From positions 1-64,000 of the forward strand of contig NZ_OBMT01000005.1 of assembly GCF_900217815.1 (NCBI RefSeq): a stretch of 64,000 nt of DNA. Reading direction: 5' to 3'. Position 1 is the first letter of the stretch, and every line of letters starts with the position of its first letter. Below are positions 9,770 through 49,585 of the stretch, in pieces. Position numbers and translations under genes: made by a program. The notes beneath the pieces were generated by a model, which made no database searches, was not told the DNA's origin, and saw only the letters and a list, made by a program, of their open reading frames with translations. This DNA is from Rhodobacter maris. Its GTDB lineage: Bacteria; Pseudomonadota; Alphaproteobacteria; Rhodobacterales; Rhodobacteraceae.

Positions 9770-12203
9770 ATGGCATCGGGTCTGATCGGCATCGGGACTC
9801 TGTGCGGAGGCGGGCTGGACCTGCCGGCCGGACAGGCGGAGATCTGGATCGGCGGTAGCGCTGCCGAACCAAGGATCACGGTTGCCAATTACAGTTTTGG
9901 GGCGAGCGAGATTTTCGGCCTCAGCGCAAGTGGTGCGCTGAACGCATCCGATGAGCGGCTGCATCTGACCGAGACCCGGATCCCGGCGGTCATCAACGGC
10001 AGCGCTGGCGCGCTCTCGCTGTCCGCAATCCGCGACGGGCTAGAGGCCGCGGCACAGGGCGACACGGGCGCCCGGCTCGGTTTTCTCGATGCCGCCGCCT
10101 TTCAGGCGCAGGCGGCCAGCCTTCTGACGACCGAAGGGAGCGGTCAGGCGCTTCTGATCGCCGCGCCGGTCTCCGGTGCGGGGATTACGGTCTATGGCTG
10201 GAACGACGCGCAGGCCACGCTCAGCCTTGTGCAGACCGTCGCTGATACCGAGCTGCGCTATCTCGACCGGGTCTCCGATATGGCGCTGGTGCAATCGGGC
10301 AATGCGCGGTTTCTGTTCGTCGGCTCGGCCTCCGAGCACGGGGTGACGGGCTTCGCACTCGACGCGAGCGGCACGCTCGGCGCGGAAATCAGCCTCGGGA
10401 TGACGGAATCGGTGCCGGTCCAGACTGTCACCGCACTTGCGAGCGCAACGATCGGCACGACAGGCTTTCTGATCACCGCCGCCGCGGGCTCTTCGAGCCT
10501 CACCGTCATGAAAGTGGGCGCCGATGGCAGCATCGACGTGACCGACCACATGATCGACGATCTCCACACCCGCTTTGCCGGGGCGAGCAAGCTCGAGGTG
10601 GTCAGCGTCGGAGATCATGTCTTCGTGCTCGCCGCTGGCAGCGATGACGGGCTCACTCTTTTTGCGCCTCACCCCGGAGGGGCGGCTGGTGCTGATCGAA
10701 AGCCTCGCCGATACGGATGATCTGGTGCTCGACGGGGTGACGGCGCTCGCCGCCGCCGCGCTGGGCGATGCAATCCGCATTTTCACCACCTCGGGCAGTG
10801 AGGCGGGGCTCGGACAGATCGCGCTCGACATCTCAACTCTCGGTGCCGTCAGTTCGAAAGACATGGGCACGCTCACCGGCACCGCGGGAGATGACATGCT
10901 CTCCCTCACCACCGGATCAGGCACGCTCCTGGGCGACGCCGGCAACGATATTCTGAGCGACGGGCCGGGCTGCGACCGGCTGCAGGGGGGCGCCGGGGCC
11001 GATATTTTCGTGCTCTGCGCGGATGGCCAGACGGATACGATCCTCGATGTCACCCCGGGCGAGGACCGGATCGATCTTTCGGGTTGGCCGATGTTCTATG
11101 CCGCGCGCCAGGCGCTCTACATCGCCACCGCAACCGGCGCCACGCTGCGCTTCGGCGACGAAGTGCTGGTGCTCCGCTCGGCTGCGGGCAAGCCTTTGAC
11201 ACTTCAGGATATTGCCGCGCTGATCCCATTCGTGACAAGCCATTTCGAGGTCACGGTGCAGCCGCTTTTACACAGCGATCCCGACCCCGTTCCGGAATCG
11301 CCGGAGACGCCGGGGTTACACCTTACCGGCACTGATGGCGACGACAGCCTGGACGGTGGTGCGGGCAGCGACGTGATCGACGGCGGCAACGGCGATGACC
11401 GGCTTTTTGGCGAGGGCGGTGATGACTGGCTGGCGGGGCGCGGCGGAAACGACAGCCTCGATGGCGGCGACGGCAATGATTCCCTGGCCTCTGCCGCGGG
11501 CGACGACGTGATTCATGGCGGCGCCGGGAACGACAATATCGGCGCCGGCACAGGCCATGACACGGTTTTCAGCGAGGCTGGCCACGACACGATCGGCGGC
11601 GGCGCGGGCAGGGATTCGCTCAGCGGCGGCGCCGATAACGACGCGATCAGCGGCGGGCCGGGCAATGACCGGCTGTTCGGTGACGATGGTGCGGATTCGC
11701 TCGCGGGCGGCATCGGCAACGACCGCGTCGATGGCGGCGCCGGAGAGGATGATCTGGGCGGCGGCCCCGGGTGCGACACGCTTTTGGGCGGGTCCGGTGA
11801 TGACCGGCTGGGCGGCGGCGAGGGGGATGATGCGCTTTTTGGCGAGTCCGGCGACGATTTTCTGGCCGGGGGCGGGCGTAACGACAGGCTCTCTGGCGGA
11901 GAGGGCGCCGACACGCTCAATGGTGGAACGGGCGAAGACTGGCTCGCGGGCGGCGCGGGGGCCGATCTCTTCGTGTTCAATCTGCTCACCGCGGGCGAGC
12001 ATGACGTGATCGCCGATTTCGAGACCGGGCTCGACCGGATCCGGCTTGCAGACATCCCCCCCGCGGCCAGCGGCGGGCGGTTCGGCACGCTCACATTCGA
12101 GGCCGCAGCACAGGGCACGCTCCTGATCTGGCACGGGCACGAGATCCTGCTCGAAGGCGTTGTTCAGGCAGATCTGTCCGCAAAAGACTTTCTCTTTGTC
12201 TGA
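9770..12203 (+). pseudogene. RTX calcium-binding protein with beta-propeller-like N-terminus, one-base frameshift
   Basis: Two overlapping frames make one protein if a single T is removed from the five-T run at 10659-10663; the joined product would be 810 residues. The N-terminal 350 residues hold repeated units ending in patterns such as FLFVGSASEHGVTGFALDAS, like a lactonase-type beta-propeller. The rest is an RTX domain of about 20 GGxGxDxxx nonapeptides that would bind calcium after secretion, then a C-terminal secretion region ending KDFLFV. There is no Sec signal. As written the first frame stops at 10720, giving a 316-residue product without RTX repeats. The cause could be a real mutation, a sequencing error, or frameshifting. 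Confidence 0.7.
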
Positions 12204-40347: not shown

Positions 40348-41183
40348 ACCGAAAGCACCTTTTCGCGCAGCTCAGCCGTCACTTCCGGGCGTTGACCGAA
40401 CCAGCGTTCGAATCCTGGCACCGCCTGATGCAGCAGCATCCCGAAGCCATCAACCGTGATGCAGCCGCGCTCGGCCGCTTCGAGGAGCAACCGGGTCTGC
40501 AAGGGGGTGTAGACGCAATCGGTCACCACGGCACTGTCGGGCAATACATCAAGCGGGATGCGCAGATCGGGCTTGCCCACCATGCCGAGCGAGGTGGTGT
40601 TCACGAGCGTTGCCACCCCCTCCATCATGTTCGCCGCCTGCCCCCAGTCATAAACCACAAGGCGGGCGCCAAATTCGGCGCGCAGCACCTCCGCGCGGGC
40701 GCGGGTGCGGTTGGCCACCCGCACTTCGGGGCAGCCGGTCTCGATCAACGCCGCGATGATCGCGCGAGCCGCGCCACCAGCGCCCAGCACGGCAGCCGGG
40801 GCGAGCGCGGCATCCCAATGTGGCGCCGTCTCGCGCAGATTGGCGATGAACCCATAGCCATCTGTATTATCCGCATAAATCCGGCCGTCCGGATGAAAGA
40901 CAAGCGTATTGGTTGCGCCGATCAGCGCCGCGCGATCCGAAATCACATCGGCCAGCGCGAGCGCGCGTTCCTTGTGCGGGATGGTGATGTTGCAGCCAAC
41001 GAAACCGGCGCGGGGCAGGGCGCGCAGCACCGCTTCCAGATCTTCCTCGGCCACATCCATCGGCACATAATGGCCTTTGATGCCATAGGTCTTGAGCCAA
41101 TGGCCATGCAGCGCGGGCGAGCGCGAATGCGCGATCGGATGACCGATCACACCGGCAAGAGGAATTTTCGGATGATCGCTCAT
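40344..41183 (-). CDS. aroE: Shikimate dehydrogenase
   Basis: A 279-residue NADPH enzyme of the shikimate pathway. Substrate binding is seen in [17 protein letters not shown] and [11 protein letters not shown], with the catalytic Lys in the latter; the cofactor loop is [15 protein letters not shown] and the specificity motif is NRTRARA. The start overlaps the Maf gene stop. Confidence 0.97.
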
Positions 41184-41776
41184 GTCGTCAGCTCTCCGCG
41201 GGCGCGCAACCAGTTGAGGAATTCGAGAAGGGGCAGGCCGAGAACGGCAAAGTAATCCCCTTCGACCGAAGAAAACAGCCGAACGCCCTCTTCTTCAAGC
41301 TTGTAGCAACCGACAGCGTGGCGAATGCTCTCCCAGTTGCGCGCGACATAGGCCGCGATGAAGGGGGCGGTGAGCGGGTGCATCGTGAGGCGCACCTCGG
41401 CAACATGGCGCCAGAGCGGTTCCTCCCCGCGCATTACCACGAGCGCCGACAAAAGCCGGTGTTCGCGGCCGGAAAGTGCCACAAGATGCGCGGCGGCTTC
41501 CTCGGGTGTCTCAGGTTTGGAAAAAACCCTTCCCCCACATTCGAGGATCTGATCGGCCCCGAGCACCAGCGCCTCTGGGTGAGCGCGGGCCACTTTCCGC
41601 GCCTTGGCCTCGGCGAGCGCATCGGCAAGGTCGCGCGGGCTCGCCCCCTCGGCACAAAGACCCGCACGGATTGCCGCCTCGTCGACGCGGGCGGGTTGCA
41701 CTGCAAGCGCGAGCCCGGCCGCACGCAGAAGTCTGGCGCGGACCTCGGAGGCGGAGGCAAGGAGAAGCTCTGGCAT
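41180..41776 (-). CDS. Maf family nucleoside-triphosphate pyrophosphatase
   Basis: A 198-residue Maf/Ham1-like protein that hydrolyses non-standard or UTP/dTTP-type nucleotides. [18 protein letters not shown] at the start is the Maf signature, and the [24 protein letters not shown] and [15 protein letters not shown] blocks follow. The ATG at 41776 is the family start; the open frame before it runs into the origin region. It reads away from the origin. Confidence 0.93.
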
Positions 41777-42162
41777 GTGGACAACCAACAGGAAAAGCGC
41801 AGGGGCGGGTCTGTGGATAGAGGGCCCGCGCGCAATTCCTCCCCGGTCCGGCGGGGGTTTGTCAAGGAACGTAAACGGATTCCTAACAGGTTGAGAATGC
41901 GAAGCCCGGGGTGTGGGAAAGCGCCGCAGTCCACATGCCCGCAGCTTGTTGACCCGCAAGTCTACCCACAGGTTCGGGCCGTCCAAAGATATGAAAAACA
42001 TATCTGATTCAGGTTTTTCAACAGCTCCGGGTGGGTGGTTCTTCCCAGCTTTTCTGCCTGTGGGTGCCAGCGGGAGAACCCGATAATCCACATCATCCAC
42101 AGCCCAATCAAAATCATCATCTTTTCTTTTCTTTCTTTTATCTTTTAAGAAGAGGCAGACGA
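41777..42162. other. Putative chromosomal replication origin (oriC)
   Basis: A gene-free stretch between divergent maf and hemJ. It holds DnaA boxes one base off TTATCCACA at 41776-41784 (minus), 41812-41820 (minus), 42084-42092 and 42093-42101 (adjacent, plus), with weaker ones at 41912-41920 and 41962-41970. A low-GC pyrimidine-rich tract (42102-42148) could be the unwinding element, and an inverted repeat lies at 41989-42007. Two GANTC methylation sites occur (41878, 42006). Flanking genes read outward on both sides, and parA, parB and parS lie within 8 kb. In Caulobacter-like genomes the origin lies in the same neighbourhood, between maf- and hem-side genes. Confidence 0.75.
41989..42007. 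repeat. Inverted repeat within the putative origin
   Basis: AGATATG and CATATCT are perfect seven-base arms around AAAAA. It lies between the two groups of DnaA boxes and could be a protein-binding site. Confidence 0.6.
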
Positions 42163-42660
42163 ATGGAGGCGCTTGTGACTGATCTTCTTGCTACGCTCGG
42201 CGACACTCTCTGGGACGGCTACCTCTGGATCAAGGCGCTTCACGTGATGTCGGTTCTCGCCTGGATGGCGGGGCTGTTCTATCTGCCGCGGCTTTACGTT
42301 TATCACGTCGAGGGGCTGAAGAAGCAGGGCGTGGTGCGTGGCTCCGAGATGGATCTGTTATTCCAGCATCAGGAACGGCTGCTCCTGAAGGCGATCATGA
42401 ACCCGGCCGCGGTCTCCACCTGGTTTTTCGGGCTGTGCCTCGTGTTCACGCCCGGGATCGTTGACTGGAGCATGGCCTGGCCATGGGCAAAAGGCTTTTC
42501 GGTCATCGCGATGACGGTGTTTCACCTGTTCCTTGGCCGTGCCCGGCTCAAATTCGTTGATGGCACGAACGATCTCGCCGGGCGTCAATGGCGGATGATG
42601 AACGAGATCCCGACGCTCCTGATGGTGCTGATCGTGCTTTCGGTGATCCTCAAATTCTGA
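42163..42660 (+). CDS. hemJ: Protoporphyrinogen oxidase HemJ
   Basis: A 165-residue four-helix membrane protein (UPF0093). [23 protein letters not shown] carries the conserved histidine and WM...LPR pattern, and the second conserved region [15 protein letters not shown] follows. It catalyses the penultimate step of heme and chlorophyll synthesis in organisms without HemG or HemY. The ATG at 42163 follows AAGAGG. It is the first gene on the right arm of the origin. Confidence 0.93.
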
Positions 42661-45386: not shown

Positions 45387-47258
45387 GTGTTTCACGTGAA
45401 ACATCTGGACGTGATCGTGGTGGGGGGTGGCCATGCCGGGGCAGAGGCCGCGCATGCGTCGGCGCGGATGGGCGCGCAAACCGGGCTTGTCACGATGCGG
45501 CGCGCGGACCTTGGTGTGATGTCTTGCAACCCGGCGATTGGCGGGCTCGGCAAGGGGCATCTGGTGCGCGAGATCGATGCGCTCGACGGGGTGATGAGCC
45601 GCGCGGCCGACCGCGCCGGGATTCAGTTTCGTCTTCTCAACCGCCGCAAAGGGCCCGCGGTGCAAGGCCCGCGCGCGCAGGCGGACCGCAAGCTCTACCG
45701 TGAGGCGATGACAGAGTTGACGGCGGCGCAGCCAAACCTCGCGGTGATCGAGGCGGAGGTGACCGACCTGCGGCTTGAGGCGGGCCGGGTGGCGGGTGTG
45801 ATTCTGGCCGATGGTTCAGAGATTACGGCCAAGGCCGTCATCCTGACCGCGGGCACGTTTTTGAACGGGGTCATGCATATTGGCGACCAGCGCGCAGCCG
45901 GGGGCAGGGTGGGCGACGCGCCCTCCGTGCGGCTGGCGCAAAGGCTGCGCGATCTTGAGCCGCGAATCGGGCGGTTGAAAACCGGCACGCCGCCGCGGCT
46001 CGATGGTCGGACGATTGACTGGAGCATCCTCGAGATGCAGCCGGGCGACGAGGATCCGGTGATGTTCAGCTTCCTGAACCGCAGGCCGTTCGTGCGGCAG
46101 ATTGCTTGCGGCATCACCCATACCAACGAATCGACCCATGAGGTGATTCGCGCAAATCTGCAGCGGTCGGCGATGTATGGCGGCCATATCGAGGGGGTGG
46201 GGCCGCGCTACTGCCCCTCGATCGAGGACAAGGTGGTGCGCTTTGCCGACAAGAGCGCGCATCAGGTGTTTCTCGAACCCGAGGGGCTTGACGATCACAC
46301 CGTCTACCCGAATGGGATTTCCACATCGCTGCCGTTTGAGGTGCAGGAGGCCTATGTGCGTTCGATCCGCGGCCTCGAGCAGGTGAAGATCCTGCAAGCG
46401 GGCTATGCGATCGAATATGATTTTGTGGACCCGCGCGCACTTTCGAATCGTCTTGAGTTGCGCGACCTGCCGGGGCTGTTCCTCGCCGGGCAGATCAACG
46501 GGACAACGGGCTATGAAGAGGCGGCGGCCCAAGGCCTTGTGGCGGGCTTCAATGCCGCCAGCAACAGCTTGGGGCGCGCGCCGGTCACCTTCAGCCGGAC
46601 AGAGAGCTACATCGGCGTGATGATCGACGATCTGGTAACCCGCGGCGTGAGCGAGCCTTACCGTATGTTCACCTCACGCGCCGAGTTCCGGCTCGCCTTG
46701 CGGGCAGATAACGCCGATCAACGGCTCACGCCGCTCGGCCTTGCTGCGGGCTGTGTAGGCGAAGAGCGGCGCGGCGCGTTTGAGGAGAAGATGGCGCGGC
46801 TTGGGGCAGGACGGGCGCTGCTCGAGTCGCTCGTGCTCACACCGAAACAGGCGAATGAGCGCGGCTTGAGGGTGAACCAGGATGGCACGAAGCGCAGCGC
46901 CTTCGAGCTTCTGGCCTTCCCGGAGATCGACTTTGCCGCGGTGAGCGCCGCGTTCCCGGAACTTGCCGAGATGCCGGAGGATGTTTCCGAGCAGCTCTCG
47001 CGCGAGGCGCTTTACGCCAATTACATCGAGCGGCAGAAGCTTGATGTTGAGGCGATGCGGCGCGACGAGCATTGGGAAATCCCGGAGGGATTTGATTACG
47101 AGGCGCTGCCGGGCCTTTCAAAAGAGCTGCGCGGCAAGTTTGGCCGGGCGCAACCGCGCACGCTCGCGCAAGCGGGCCGGGTGGATGGCGCAACCCCCGC
47201 GGCGCTCGCCTTGATCCTCGCGCATTTGCGGCAACGCAAACGGGCAGGGCAAGCATGA
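45387..47258 (+). CDS. mnmG: tRNA uridine 5-carboxymethylaminomethyl modification enzyme MnmG
   Basis: A 623-residue FAD enzyme, partner of MnmE. FAD binding is [17 protein letters not shown], with the conserved cysteine in MSCNPAIGG-type context and [10 protein letters not shown] and the C-terminal helical domain present. The start is a GTG at 45387 with AAGGA upstream; its first codons (M-F-H-V-K-H) are spelled by the parS palindrome. Overlaps rsmG by ATGA. Confidence 0.97.
45388..45403. promoter_or_regulatory. parS centromere site at the mnmG start
   Basis: TGTTTCACGTGAAACA, a perfect 16-base palindrome equal to the bacterial ParB-binding consensus. It overlaps the GTG start and the first five codons of mnmG. 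It lies 3.3 kb from parB-side genes' operon start and 3.2 kb from the putative origin. Confidence 0.95.
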
Positions 47259-47875
47259 GCGCCGAGAGCTTCGCCGCCCGCGTGAATGTTTCACGTGAAA
47301 CACTGGATCGGCTTTCGGCGCTTGAGGCGCTGCTGCAAAAGTGGAACCCCGCGATCAACCTCGTTTCTGCGGCAACGCTCACCGAGGTCTGGACCCGGCA
47401 TTTTCTCGATTCGGCGCAGCTTTTCGACTGCATCGCGGGAGAGGTCGCGCATTGGGCGGATCTTGGCAGCGGCGGCGGCTTTCCGGGGCTTGTTGTTGGC
47501 GTTCTCGCGCGAGAAAAACGCCCCGAGATGCACCTGACGCTGGTGGAGAGCGACAAGCGCAAATCCGCCTTTCTCCTCAACGCGGCGCGCGAACTCGGGC
47601 TCAAGGCCGTGGTGCGGGCGGAGCGGATCGAGAAGGTGCCGCCGCTTGGCGCCGATGTGCTTTCAGCGCGCGCGCTGGCGCCGTTACCCAAGCTTCTTGA
47701 ATTTGCGGCGCTTCACCTGTCGCCCGGAGGCATCGCCCTCTTCCCGAAAGGGGAGCGCTGGAAAGAGGAGGTTGCGCTGGCCGAGGCTTCATGGTCCTTT
47801 ACCTGCGAGCCGCGGGAAAGCCTGACGGATCCGCAGGCGGTTGTCTTGAAAATCAGGGGTTTGGAACGTGTCTGA
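47255..47875 (+). CDS. rsmG: 16S rRNA guanine-527 N7-methyltransferase
   Basis: A 206-residue SAM-dependent methyltransferase for G527 of 16S rRNA (formerly GidB). The SAM loop is [18 protein letters not shown] and the acidic [14 protein letters not shown] follows; the late [15 protein letters not shown] is also typical. It overlaps both mnmG and parA. A parS site lies within its early coding sequence. Confidence 0.96.
47287..47302. promoter_or_regulatory. Second parS site, inside rsmG
   Basis: The same 16-base palindrome TGTTTCACGTGAAACA as at 45388, here inside rsmG codons for NVSRET. Two perfect copies 1.9 kb apart are well beyond chance and mark the segregation centromere. Confidence 0.95.
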
Positions 47876-48689
47876 TCCGACGCGGCCCGCGGGGCCGAGA
47901 ATCATCGCGGTGGCGAACCAGAAGGGCGGCGTTGGCAAGACGACGACCTCGATCAACCTCGCAGCGGCGCTGGCCGAGCAGGGGCTCAGGATCCTGTTGG
48001 TCGATCTTGATCCGCAGGGCAATGCCTCGACCGGGGTGGGCGTTGAGACCTCTGCGCGCAGCTATAGCACCTATGATCTCCTTCTCGGCGAAGCGCCGTT
48101 GACCGAGGTGATCCAGAAAACCGAGATCGACGGGCTCTGGATTTCGCCGGCAACGGTGGATCTTTCCTCCGCCGATATGGAGCTCGTTTCGGCGGAAAAG
48201 CGCAGCTATCTCTTGCATGATGCGCTGCGCCAGATCGATATGGACCAGTTTGCCTTCGATTACGTGCTGATCGACTGCCCGCCGTCGCTCAATCTGCTCA
48301 CCGTCAATGCGATGGTGGCGGCGCAATCGGTGCTGGTGCCGCTGCAGGCGGAGTTTTTTGCGCTTGAGGGGCTGTCGCAGCTGATGCTGACGATCCGCGA
48401 GGTGCGGCAGAACGCGAACAAGGATCTGCGCATCGAGGGGATCGTGCTCACCATGTATGATGTGCGCAACAACCTCTCGCAGCAGGTGGAATCAGATGCG
48501 CGGGCGACGCTGGGCGAGCTTGTGTTCCGCACCATGATCCCGCGCAACGTGCGCATTTCAGAGGCGCCGTCTTTCGCGCTACCGGTGCTGAGCTACGACA
48601 GCTCGTCGAAAGGGGCGGAGGCTTACCGCCATCTTGCGCGCGAGCTTCTGGCGCGCCATACCCCGGTGAAAACGAAGGTGGCAGGATGA
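47868..48689 (+). CDS. parA: Chromosome partitioning ATPase ParA
   Basis: A 273-residue deviant-Walker ATPase that positions the origin with ParB and parS. The deviant Walker A is KGGVGKTTTSINLAAALA, followed by ILLVDLDPQGNAS and the later DYVLIDCPPSL. It overlaps rsmG by eight bases and parB by ATGA. It works on nucleoid DNA near the cell poles. Confidence 0.97.
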   Translation: MSDPTRPAGPRIIAVANQKGGVGKTTTSINLAAALAEQGLRILLVDLDPQGNASTGVGVETSARSYSTYDLLLGEAPLTEVIQKTEIDGLWISPATVDLSSADMELVSAEKRSYLLHDALRQIDMDQFAFDYVLIDCPPSLNLLTVNAMVAAQSVLVPLQAEFFALEGLSQLMLTIREVRQNANKDLRIEGIVLTMYDVRNNLSQQVESDARATLGELVFRTMIPRNVRISEAPSFALPVLSYDSSSKGAEAYRHLARELLARHTPVKTKVAG

Positions 48690-49585
48690 GCATCAAAAAA
48701 CCGGAACGGCGCGGCCTGGGGAGGGGGCTCTCGGCACTGATGGCCGATGTGCAATCGGCGGTGGCCGAGGATGAGGAAACGCCACGGCGGCGCGACCAGA
48801 TGGTGCCGATCGAGCGGATCGTGCCAAACCCGGATCAGCCGCGGCGCACATTTTCAGAGGCTTCTCTGGAGGAACTGCGCGCCTCTATCGCCGAGAAGGG
48901 CGTGATCCAGCCACTCATCGTACGCGCCCATCCGGGCCGCGACGGGCATTACGAGATTGTTGCGGGTGAGCGGCGCTGGCGCGCGGCGCAACTGGCGCAA
49001 CTGCACGAATTGCCGGTGATCATCCGGGATTTCACCGATACCGAAGTGCTGGAAGTCGCCATCATCGAGAACATTCAGCGGGCCGATCTGAACCCGCTTG
49101 AAGAGGCGATGGGCTACCGCCAGTTGATGGAACGGTTCGGTCATACACAAGAGAAAGTGGCAGAAGCGCTTTCCAAGAGCCGTAGCCATATTGCCAACCT
49201 GCTCCGCCTGCTGAGCCTGCCCGAAGAGATTCAGGGCTATCTGCGCGAGGGCAAGCTGACGGCGGGCCATGCACGGGCGCTGATCACGGCGGAAGATCCG
49301 GTGGGCCTGGCGCGTGAGGTGATCGCGCGGGGGCTTTCCGTGCGCGAAGTCGAACGGCTCGTCAAAGGGGAGGGCGGCCCGACGAAGCCCGCGAGCCGGA
49401 AGCCGGGCTTTGCGGCGCCCGAAAAAGATGCCGATACGCGGGTGCTCGAGGGCGATCTTTCCGCCACGATTGGCATGAATGTCAGCATCGAGCACAGCGG
49501 CGCGGAGGGCGGGAAGCTGATCATTTCCTATCGCTCGCTCGACGATCTCGATAGGCTTTGCCAAGCGCTGAACCATATGGGCTAA
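48686..49585 (+). CDS. parB: Chromosome partitioning protein ParB
   Basis: A 299-residue CTP-dependent clamp that loads at parS. An N-terminal ParA-contact stretch (RRGLGRGLSALMADV) is followed by the CTPase/ParB domain with IVAGERRWRAAQLAQL, the HTH region TQEKVAEALSKSRSHIANLLRL, and a C-terminal dimer domain ending LDRLCQALNHMG. The two parS sites nearby are its expected targets. Confidence 0.97.
   Translation: MSIKKPERRGLGRGLSALMADVQSAVAEDEETPRRRDQMVPIERIVPNPDQPRRTFSEASLEELRASIAEKGVIQPLIVRAHPGRDGHYEIVAGERRWRAAQLAQLHELPVIIRDFTDTEVLEVAIIENIQRADLNPLEEAMGYRQLMERFGHTQEKVAEALSKSRSHIANLLRLLSLPEEIQGYLREGKLTAGHARALITAEDPVGLAREVIARGLSVREVERLVKGEGGPTKPASRKPGFAAPEKDADTRVLEGDLSATIGMNVSIEHSGAEGGKLIISYRSLDDLDRLCQALNHMG

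What the first reader, a model, noticed from the sequence alone, without database searches (positions are those of the whole stretch)
41777..42162. Likely chromosomal replication origin in the maf-hemJ gap
Four sites one base away from TTATCCACA (41776, 41812, 42084, 42093), two of them side by side, plus weaker ones, an AT-rich pyrimidine tract, two GANTC sites and outward-reading flanking genes. parA, parB and two parS sites lie within 8 kb. The usual hemE and DUF299 kinase neighbours of the Caulobacter-type origin are missing, so the origin would sit directly between maf and hemJ.
Basis: partly seen in the sequence, partly recalled or inferred. Interest (0 to 1): 0.75.

Follow-up and report, generated by a model that had tools for sequence, protein, structure and literature searches.

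The report
Rhodobacter chromosome replication origin beside maf
The stretch between the maf and hemJ genes is very probably the place where this Rhodobacter chromosome starts copying itself, an ordinary origin at the spot already predicted for this bacterial family.

Summary
Observation confirmed, interpretation supported. The 386-bp maf-hemJ gap carries four one-mismatch DnaA boxes (the first starts one base inside maf), two of them abutting; 0 of 2000 shuffles of the gap reach four. The abutting pair is unique in the genome. The least stable 40 bp of the window lies beside it. In 141 non-redundant homologous gaps box density is 2.88 per 400 bp against 0.05 in flanking DNA. The gap persists whichever genes flank it (DUF299-hemE, DUF299-hemJ, maf-hemE, maf-hemJ, maf-rho), so the missing hemE and DUF299 are no difficulty. 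In stretches of 64-494 kb from five genomes, no other 450-bp window exceeds the gap's count (one tie). Against: raw GC-skew minima in four relatives lie 20-85 kb away. GGGCAGGG polarity in a complete same-genus chromosome flips 11-16 kb from hemJ. dnaA is 76 kb away with one box near it. A paper already states that oriC beside maf is conserved in Rhodobacteraceae (PMC4793288): a new member of a known kind. The mildly new part is a conserved box-triplet-pyrimidine module. No experiment on this organism.

The parts
41777..42162 (.). oriC: the maf-hemJ intergenic gap
   Evidence: box cluster; conserved in 141 non-redundant family gaps, this one included
41776..41784 (-). DnaA box TTGTCCACA, overlapping the maf start codon by one base
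   Evidence: boxes counted 78 and 28 times at two alignment columns that map to the left edge of the window gap, 141 rows
41812..41820 (-). DnaA box CTATCCACA
   Evidence: counted only 4 times at this alignment column
41912..41920 (-). weak DnaA-box-like site, two mismatches
   Evidence: one-mismatch boxes counted 20 times at this alignment place
41962..41970 (+). weak DnaA-box-like site, two mismatches
42015..42023 (+). weak DnaA-box-like site, two mismatches
42084..42092 (+). DnaA box TAATCCACA, first of the abutting pair
   Evidence: counted 39 times at this alignment column
42093..42101 (+). DnaA box TCATCCACA, second of the abutting pair
   Evidence: counted 58 times at this alignment column
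42102..42112 (+). 11-bp spacer between boxes and triplets
42113..42124 (+). trio-like triplets ATC ATC ATC TTT (3'-TAG TAG TAG AAA-5' on the other strand)
   Evidence: CATCATC in 76 of 141 gaps, its complement in 0, 3.25 expected from base-composition shuffles
42110..42150 (.). probable unwinding element: least stable 40-bp stretch of the 64-kb window; includes pyrimidine tract 42120-42139
41878..41882 (.). GANTC methylation motif
42006..42010 (.). GANTC methylation motif
41180..41776 (-). maf, left flank
   Evidence: best NCBIfam matches are Maf models, all below their curated cut-offs
42163..42660 (+). hemJ, right flank
   Evidence: TIGR00701, 127.2 bits, below its curated cut-off of 138.05
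45388..45403 (.). parS, at the 5' end of mnmG
47287..47302 (.). parS, near the 5' end of rsmG
47868..48689 (+). parA
   Evidence: ParA/RepA-type ATPase models, the best below their cut-offs
48686..49585 (+). parB
   Evidence: TIGR00180 above cut-off

Best explanation
The gap is the origin (oriC) of the main chromosome. DnaA binds the boxes. The abutting pair at 42084-42101 anchors a DnaA filament that runs over the adjacent triplets and opens the AT-rich pyrimidine stretch towards hemJ, where helicase is loaded and two forks leave. ParB bound at the two parS sites 3-5 kb away then segregates the new origins. Shown here: the sites, their clustering, uniqueness and conservation, the low duplex stability, and a polarity switch nearby in a relative. 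Inferred: DnaA binding, opening, fork start and segregation.
For: Box count not reached in 2000 shuffles of the gap, and lowest duplex stability in the window beside the pair. Abutting pair unique: zero mismatches only here, three places with two mismatches, the other 26 listed places with three. 418 boxes in 58,074 bp of 141 non-redundant homologous gaps (2.88 per 400 bp) against 0.052 in the flanks; reversed motif 7; 60 shuffled motifs mean 12.9, largest 66. Gap kept through five flank arrangements. In the window, G092 and G152 the gap is the only 450-bp place with two or more boxes in 64, 400 and 494 kb; in G111 it has 4 and the next best 2; in G086 it has 2 and ties with one other place. 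In G152, GGGCAGGG polarity learned from regions far from the gap flips 11-16 kb from hemJ; in the window it switches between 37386 and 41013. Sampled skew of G152 turns negative near 1.95 Mb, about half a chromosome from the gap. The only parS sites found in the genome (up to one mismatch) are 3.2 and 5.1 kb away.
Against: Raw GC-skew minima are not at the gap: 67 kb from hemJ in G152, and 32, 85 and 20 kb in G111, G092 and G086 (the last three were searched only within 200 kb). GGGCAGGG shows no usable polarity in G092 (best split 6 of 11 sites) or G086 (34 of 58). 2 of 141 gaps have no one-mismatch box and 16 have one. In G076 maf and hemJ-hemE lie on different contigs and neither side has a box cluster. 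No perfect TTATCCACA is in this gap. No experiment on this organism.
Confidence: 0.93

Rival explanations
1. The origin lies beside dnaA, as in many bacteria, and the gap is only a DnaA-regulated promoter region.
For: dnaA is on the same contig, 76 kb from the gap.
Against: The 5.5 kb around dnaA hold one one-mismatch box. The hemJ-dnaA distance varies from 25 to 503 kb in four relatives. In G152 the polarity switch lies at 87-92 kb, nearer the gap (77 kb) than dnaA (1.5 kb).
Confidence: 0.02
2. The origin is elsewhere within about 150 kb, and the boxes serve DnaA-dependent regulation of maf and hemJ or titrate DnaA.
For: Raw skew minima are displaced by 20-85 kb in four relatives.
Against: The cluster stays when hemJ, hemE or DUF299 is replaced as neighbour, which regulation of one gene would not predict. 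In five stretches of 64-494 kb no other 450-bp place exceeds the gap's box count, with one tie in G086.
Confidence: 0.04
3. The box cluster is a chance run of near matches.
For: Over the whole window one-mismatch boxes are not significantly enriched.
Against: 0 of 2000 shuffles of the gap reach four; about 56-fold enrichment over flanking DNA in 141 gaps.
Confidence: 0.01

Closest known systems
Predicted oriC of Rhodobacteraceae, adjacent to maf (DoriC/Ori-Finder; Ketogulonicigenium vulgare Hbe602, PMC4793288, passages seen)
   Same: Location beside maf; the paper says this adjacency is conserved in the family.
   Different: The passages seen name no right-hand gene and no box and triplet module.
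Caulobacter crescentus Cori, between hemE and COG1806/DUF299 (PMC1914354, passages seen)
   Same: Corresponding place: DUF299-hemE, DUF299-hemJ, maf-hemE and maf-hemJ gaps form a series in the family. DnaA boxes, AT-rich.
   Different: hemE is on another contig and DUF299 was not found; no CtrA site up to one mismatch in the gap; no IHF consensus match.
Basal unwinding system: DnaA boxes plus DnaA-trios (PMC8287927, passages and part 1 of 2 of the results seen)
   Same: Abutting boxes, 11-bp spacer (reported peak 10-13), at least three 3'-NAN-5' triplets.
   Different: Triplets read 3'-TAG-5' in the NAN register rather than the usual 3'-GAT-5'; the loose criterion does not separate the 141 gaps from a mirror control.

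Membership tests
Rhodobacteraceae chromosomal oriC | Intergenic cluster of DnaA boxes | tested here: met
Rhodobacteraceae chromosomal oriC | Adjacent to maf | tested here: met
   rule quoted
Rhodobacteraceae chromosomal oriC | Close to parAB | tested here: met
   parA-parB 5.7-7.4 kb away; a criterion of PMC6699656
Rhodobacteraceae chromosomal oriC | Near the GC-disparity minimum | tested here: inconclusive
   Own genome is a draft; minima in four relatives lie 20-85 kb away
Rhodobacteraceae chromosomal oriC | Local low G+C | tested here: met
   gap 46.6% AT, window 36.5%; least stable 40 bp of the window
Rhodobacteraceae chromosomal oriC | Initiates replication in cells | not testable with these tools
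   needs coverage data or a minichromosome
Caulobacter-type oriC | Lies between hemE and DUF299 | tested here: not met
   hemE on contig C19, PF03618 not found in the genome
Caulobacter-type oriC | CtrA sites TTAA-N7-TTAA (motif recalled) | tested here: not met
   none up to one mismatch in the window gap
Caulobacter-type oriC | IHF site (consensus recalled) | tested here: not met
   no match to one consensus, exact
Basal unwinding system | Three or more 3'-NAN-5' triplets within 16 bp of a DnaA box | tested here: met
   read from the sequence printed; the criterion is loose: 72 of 141 gaps meet it, 66 on the mirror side
Basal unwinding system | DnaA-dependent strand opening | not testable with these tools
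   needs purified DnaA

The most novel reading that the evidence does not exclude
Rhodobacteraceae origins carry a lineage-specific form of the basal unwinding system: a DnaA box (in some, as here, abutting a second one), a GGCCCTACA-like spacer, CAT triplets kept in one register with the box, then a pyrimidine tract. It uses 3'-TAG/GTA-type triplets instead of 3'-GAT, at an origin that stayed put while hemE, DUF299 and hemJ left its flanks in different combinations.
Probability: 0.3. Interest if true: 0.5.

Novelty: new member of a known kind. Interest (0 to 1): 0.27.

Why it matters
It fixes the probable origin of this chromosome to 386 bp in a draft genome, and shows that in this family the origin is better marked by the persisting gap than by its usual marker genes. 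That helps origin calling where hemE, DUF299 and dnaA mislead. The conserved module is a ready substrate for testing how alphaproteobacterial DnaA opens DNA.

Tried and rejected
Whole-window box enrichment was weak, so clustering and conservation were used instead. Raw GC skew gave flat, displaced minima. GGGCAGGG polarity failed in G092 and G086. Counting boxes directly upstream of hemJ missed the gap in G092 and G086, because hemE sits there; the right gaps were counted. The published loose unwinding-system criterion did not discriminate (72 against 66 of 141). An origin beside dnaA was rejected. Rfam gave only a tRNA at 1430-1503. Two paper searches found no paper (oriC, Rhodobacterales, hemE, DnaA boxes; hemJ, replication origin, maf); the maf rule came from passages of a paper listed.

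The flank-gene class counts come from loci fetched mostly by hemJ, so they over-represent maf-hemJ; two searches were chosen to cover the rarer classes. From only the 30 best loci were held. Of 164 loci given to, 8 were dropped: 7 without a maf match (in L270, L276, L279 and L290 the stretch fetched holds little or no maf; L098 and L099 are contig ends; L288 is the rearranged G076) and 1 without a right-hand gene (L289, G076). 156 remained, 141 after removing near-duplicates. The 141 are related by descent, so counts are not independent events.

Full report
What is there. The window is the first 64 kb of a 218,673-bp contig (C15) of a 3.83-Mb, 57-contig genome. Its HemJ is 81% identical to that of Rhodobacter capsulatus, and the collection places the genome in one genus with 17 others. 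Gene order across the finding is coaE, aroE, maf (all leftward), a 386-bp gap, then hemJ, rho, mnmE, mnmG, rsmG, parA, parB (all rightward). Names for maf, hemJ and parA rest on NCBIfam matches below their curated cut-offs; the others pass at least one.

Is it more than chance? Over the whole window, one-mismatch boxes are not significantly enriched (7 seen, mean 3.72 in shuffles, 8 of 100 shuffles reach 7). Four of the seven fall within 326 bp. 0 of 2000 dinucleotide-preserving shuffles of the gap reached four; the largest had two. With three mismatches allowed, the tandem pattern has 30 places in the genome (control 7), but a zero-mismatch match only at 42084-42101 and three with two mismatches. 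The least stable 40-bp stretch in the 64 kb begins at 42110, eight bases past the pair, and the second least stable lies at 41984, also in the gap. In hit-anchored 450-bp windows, the gap is the only place with two or more boxes in the window (64 kb), in G092 (400 kb) and in G152 (494 kb). In G111 it has four and the next best two; in G086 it has two and ties with one other place.

Conservation. Loci from three searches and two targeted fetches gave 164 loci, of which 156 yielded a gap and 141, the window's own among them, remained after removing near-duplicates. These 141 gaps (334-597 bp, median 388) hold 418 one-mismatch boxes, 2.88 per 400 bp, against 0.052 in the flanking DNA of the same loci. 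The reversed motif occurs 7 times; 60 shuffled motifs average 12.9, largest 66. 139 of 141 gaps have at least one box and 91 have three or more. AT content averages 51% in gaps and 40% outside. GANTC is about twofold enriched (1.54 against 0.71 per 400 bp). On an alignment of the 141 gaps, boxes recur at the same places, and the best-conserved block is the hemJ end: box, spacer, triplets and T-rich tract.

The flanks moved, the gap stayed. In a sample of 150 family genomes PF03618 (DUF299) is present in only 8, and by coordinates it lies beside maf in all 8. hemE lies directly beside hemJ in at least 6 (G004, G016, G049, G076, G086, G092; a few second hemE matches were not listed). The 156 gaps fall into five arrangements: DUF299-hemE (3), DUF299-hemJ (5), maf-hemE (2), maf-hemJ (126) and maf-rho (20). 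The maf-rho gaps are the longest (469-610 bp). All the gaps printed have at least one box. The first arrangement is that of Caulobacter (PMC1914354, passages). The simplest reading is that neighbours left in different combinations around a fixed origin. One exception is G076, where maf and hemJ-hemE are on different contigs and neither has a box cluster.

Strand asymmetry. The own genome is a draft, so whole-replicon skew could not be computed. In the complete 3,738,958-bp chromosome of same-genus G152, sampled skew is mostly positive from about 0.15 to 1.95 Mb and mostly negative elsewhere, with a flat minimum at 144 kb; the gap is at about 77 kb. A masked run lies near that minimum (157.5-168 kb). 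The most polar octamer in regions far from the gap was GGGCAGGG (110 against 19 sites), which I recall as the type of FtsK-guiding motif. Its orientation switches best at 87.2-92.5 kb (88 of 114 sites fit), 11-16 kb from hemJ. In the window it switches between 37386 and 41013, on 11 sites, with one further exception at 11606. In G111 the switch interval (21 of 22 sites at best) spans the gap, with a skew minimum 32 kb away; G086 and G092 have minima 20 and 85 kb away and no usable polarity. These data place the origin near, not exactly at, the gap; the boxes place it in the gap.

Rivals. dnaA is 76 kb away in the own genome and 25 to 503 kb from hemJ in four relatives, and the 5.5 kb around it hold one box. 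A purely regulatory role for the boxes does not fit their survival when the flanking genes change.

How it probably works. DnaA binds the boxes; from the abutting pair a filament reaches the triplets 11 bp on and opens the pyrimidine tract. The layout matches the published basal unwinding system (tandem boxes, spacer peak 10-13 bp, triplets; PMC8287927). CATCATC occurs in 76 of 141 gaps and its complement in none, with 3.25 expected from base-composition shuffles. In the 65 of these 76 with a 9-mer of at most two mismatches upstream, the spacer falls in one register in 49 (my sum; 22 expected if random, relatedness ignored). A second abutting 9-mer of at most two mismatches is found in 17 of the 65. 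Against this: the triplets are not 3'-GAT; CATCATC is absent from all 10 gaps next to DUF299 or hemE; the published loose criterion is met by 72 of 141 gaps and by 66 on the mirror side, so it does not discriminate.

Known or new. PMC4793288 (passages) states from DoriC that oriC adjacent to maf is conserved in Rhodobacteraceae. PMC6699656 (parts seen) predicted oriC in 101 family members with Ori-Finder; its main text does not contain maf or hemJ. The finding is therefore a correctly recognised, ordinary family origin. The ten paper searches run listed no paper that I recognised as describing the five-flank series or the triplet module in this family; I opened nine papers, mostly in passages, the library is partial, and supplements were not read.

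Noticed in passing
window 45388-45403 and 47287-47302: The only two parS matches (up to one mismatch) in the whole genome lie at the 5' ends of mnmG and rsmG, inside the reading frames; nearly the same distances from hemJ recur in G152, G111 and G086, while G092 showed one site.
   Followed up: partly
window 41776-41784: A DnaA box overlaps the maf start codon, and boxes recur at this edge in many relatives, so DnaA could also affect maf expression.
   Followed up: partly
L260-L279, L290-L293: 29 of 150 family genomes have no or only a weak hemJ match. Of the 24 of these that were fetched, 22 show the gap directly between maf and rho; in the other two (L279, L290) the stretch held no maf match.
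   Followed up: partly
L288, L289 (G076): maf and hemJ-hemE are on different contigs and neither has a box cluster; the origin of this genome was not located.
   Followed up: partly
G111 C1:1885234 and C1:2597775: This genome has two full hemE matches above the curated cut-off, one 141 kb from hemJ.
   Followed up: no
141 family gaps: Exact CtrA-like TTAA-N7-TTAA occurs in 10 of 141 gaps against 1.0 in shuffles (48 against 24.6 with one mismatch), though not in the window: some family members may keep CtrA control (base-composition shuffles only).
   Followed up: no
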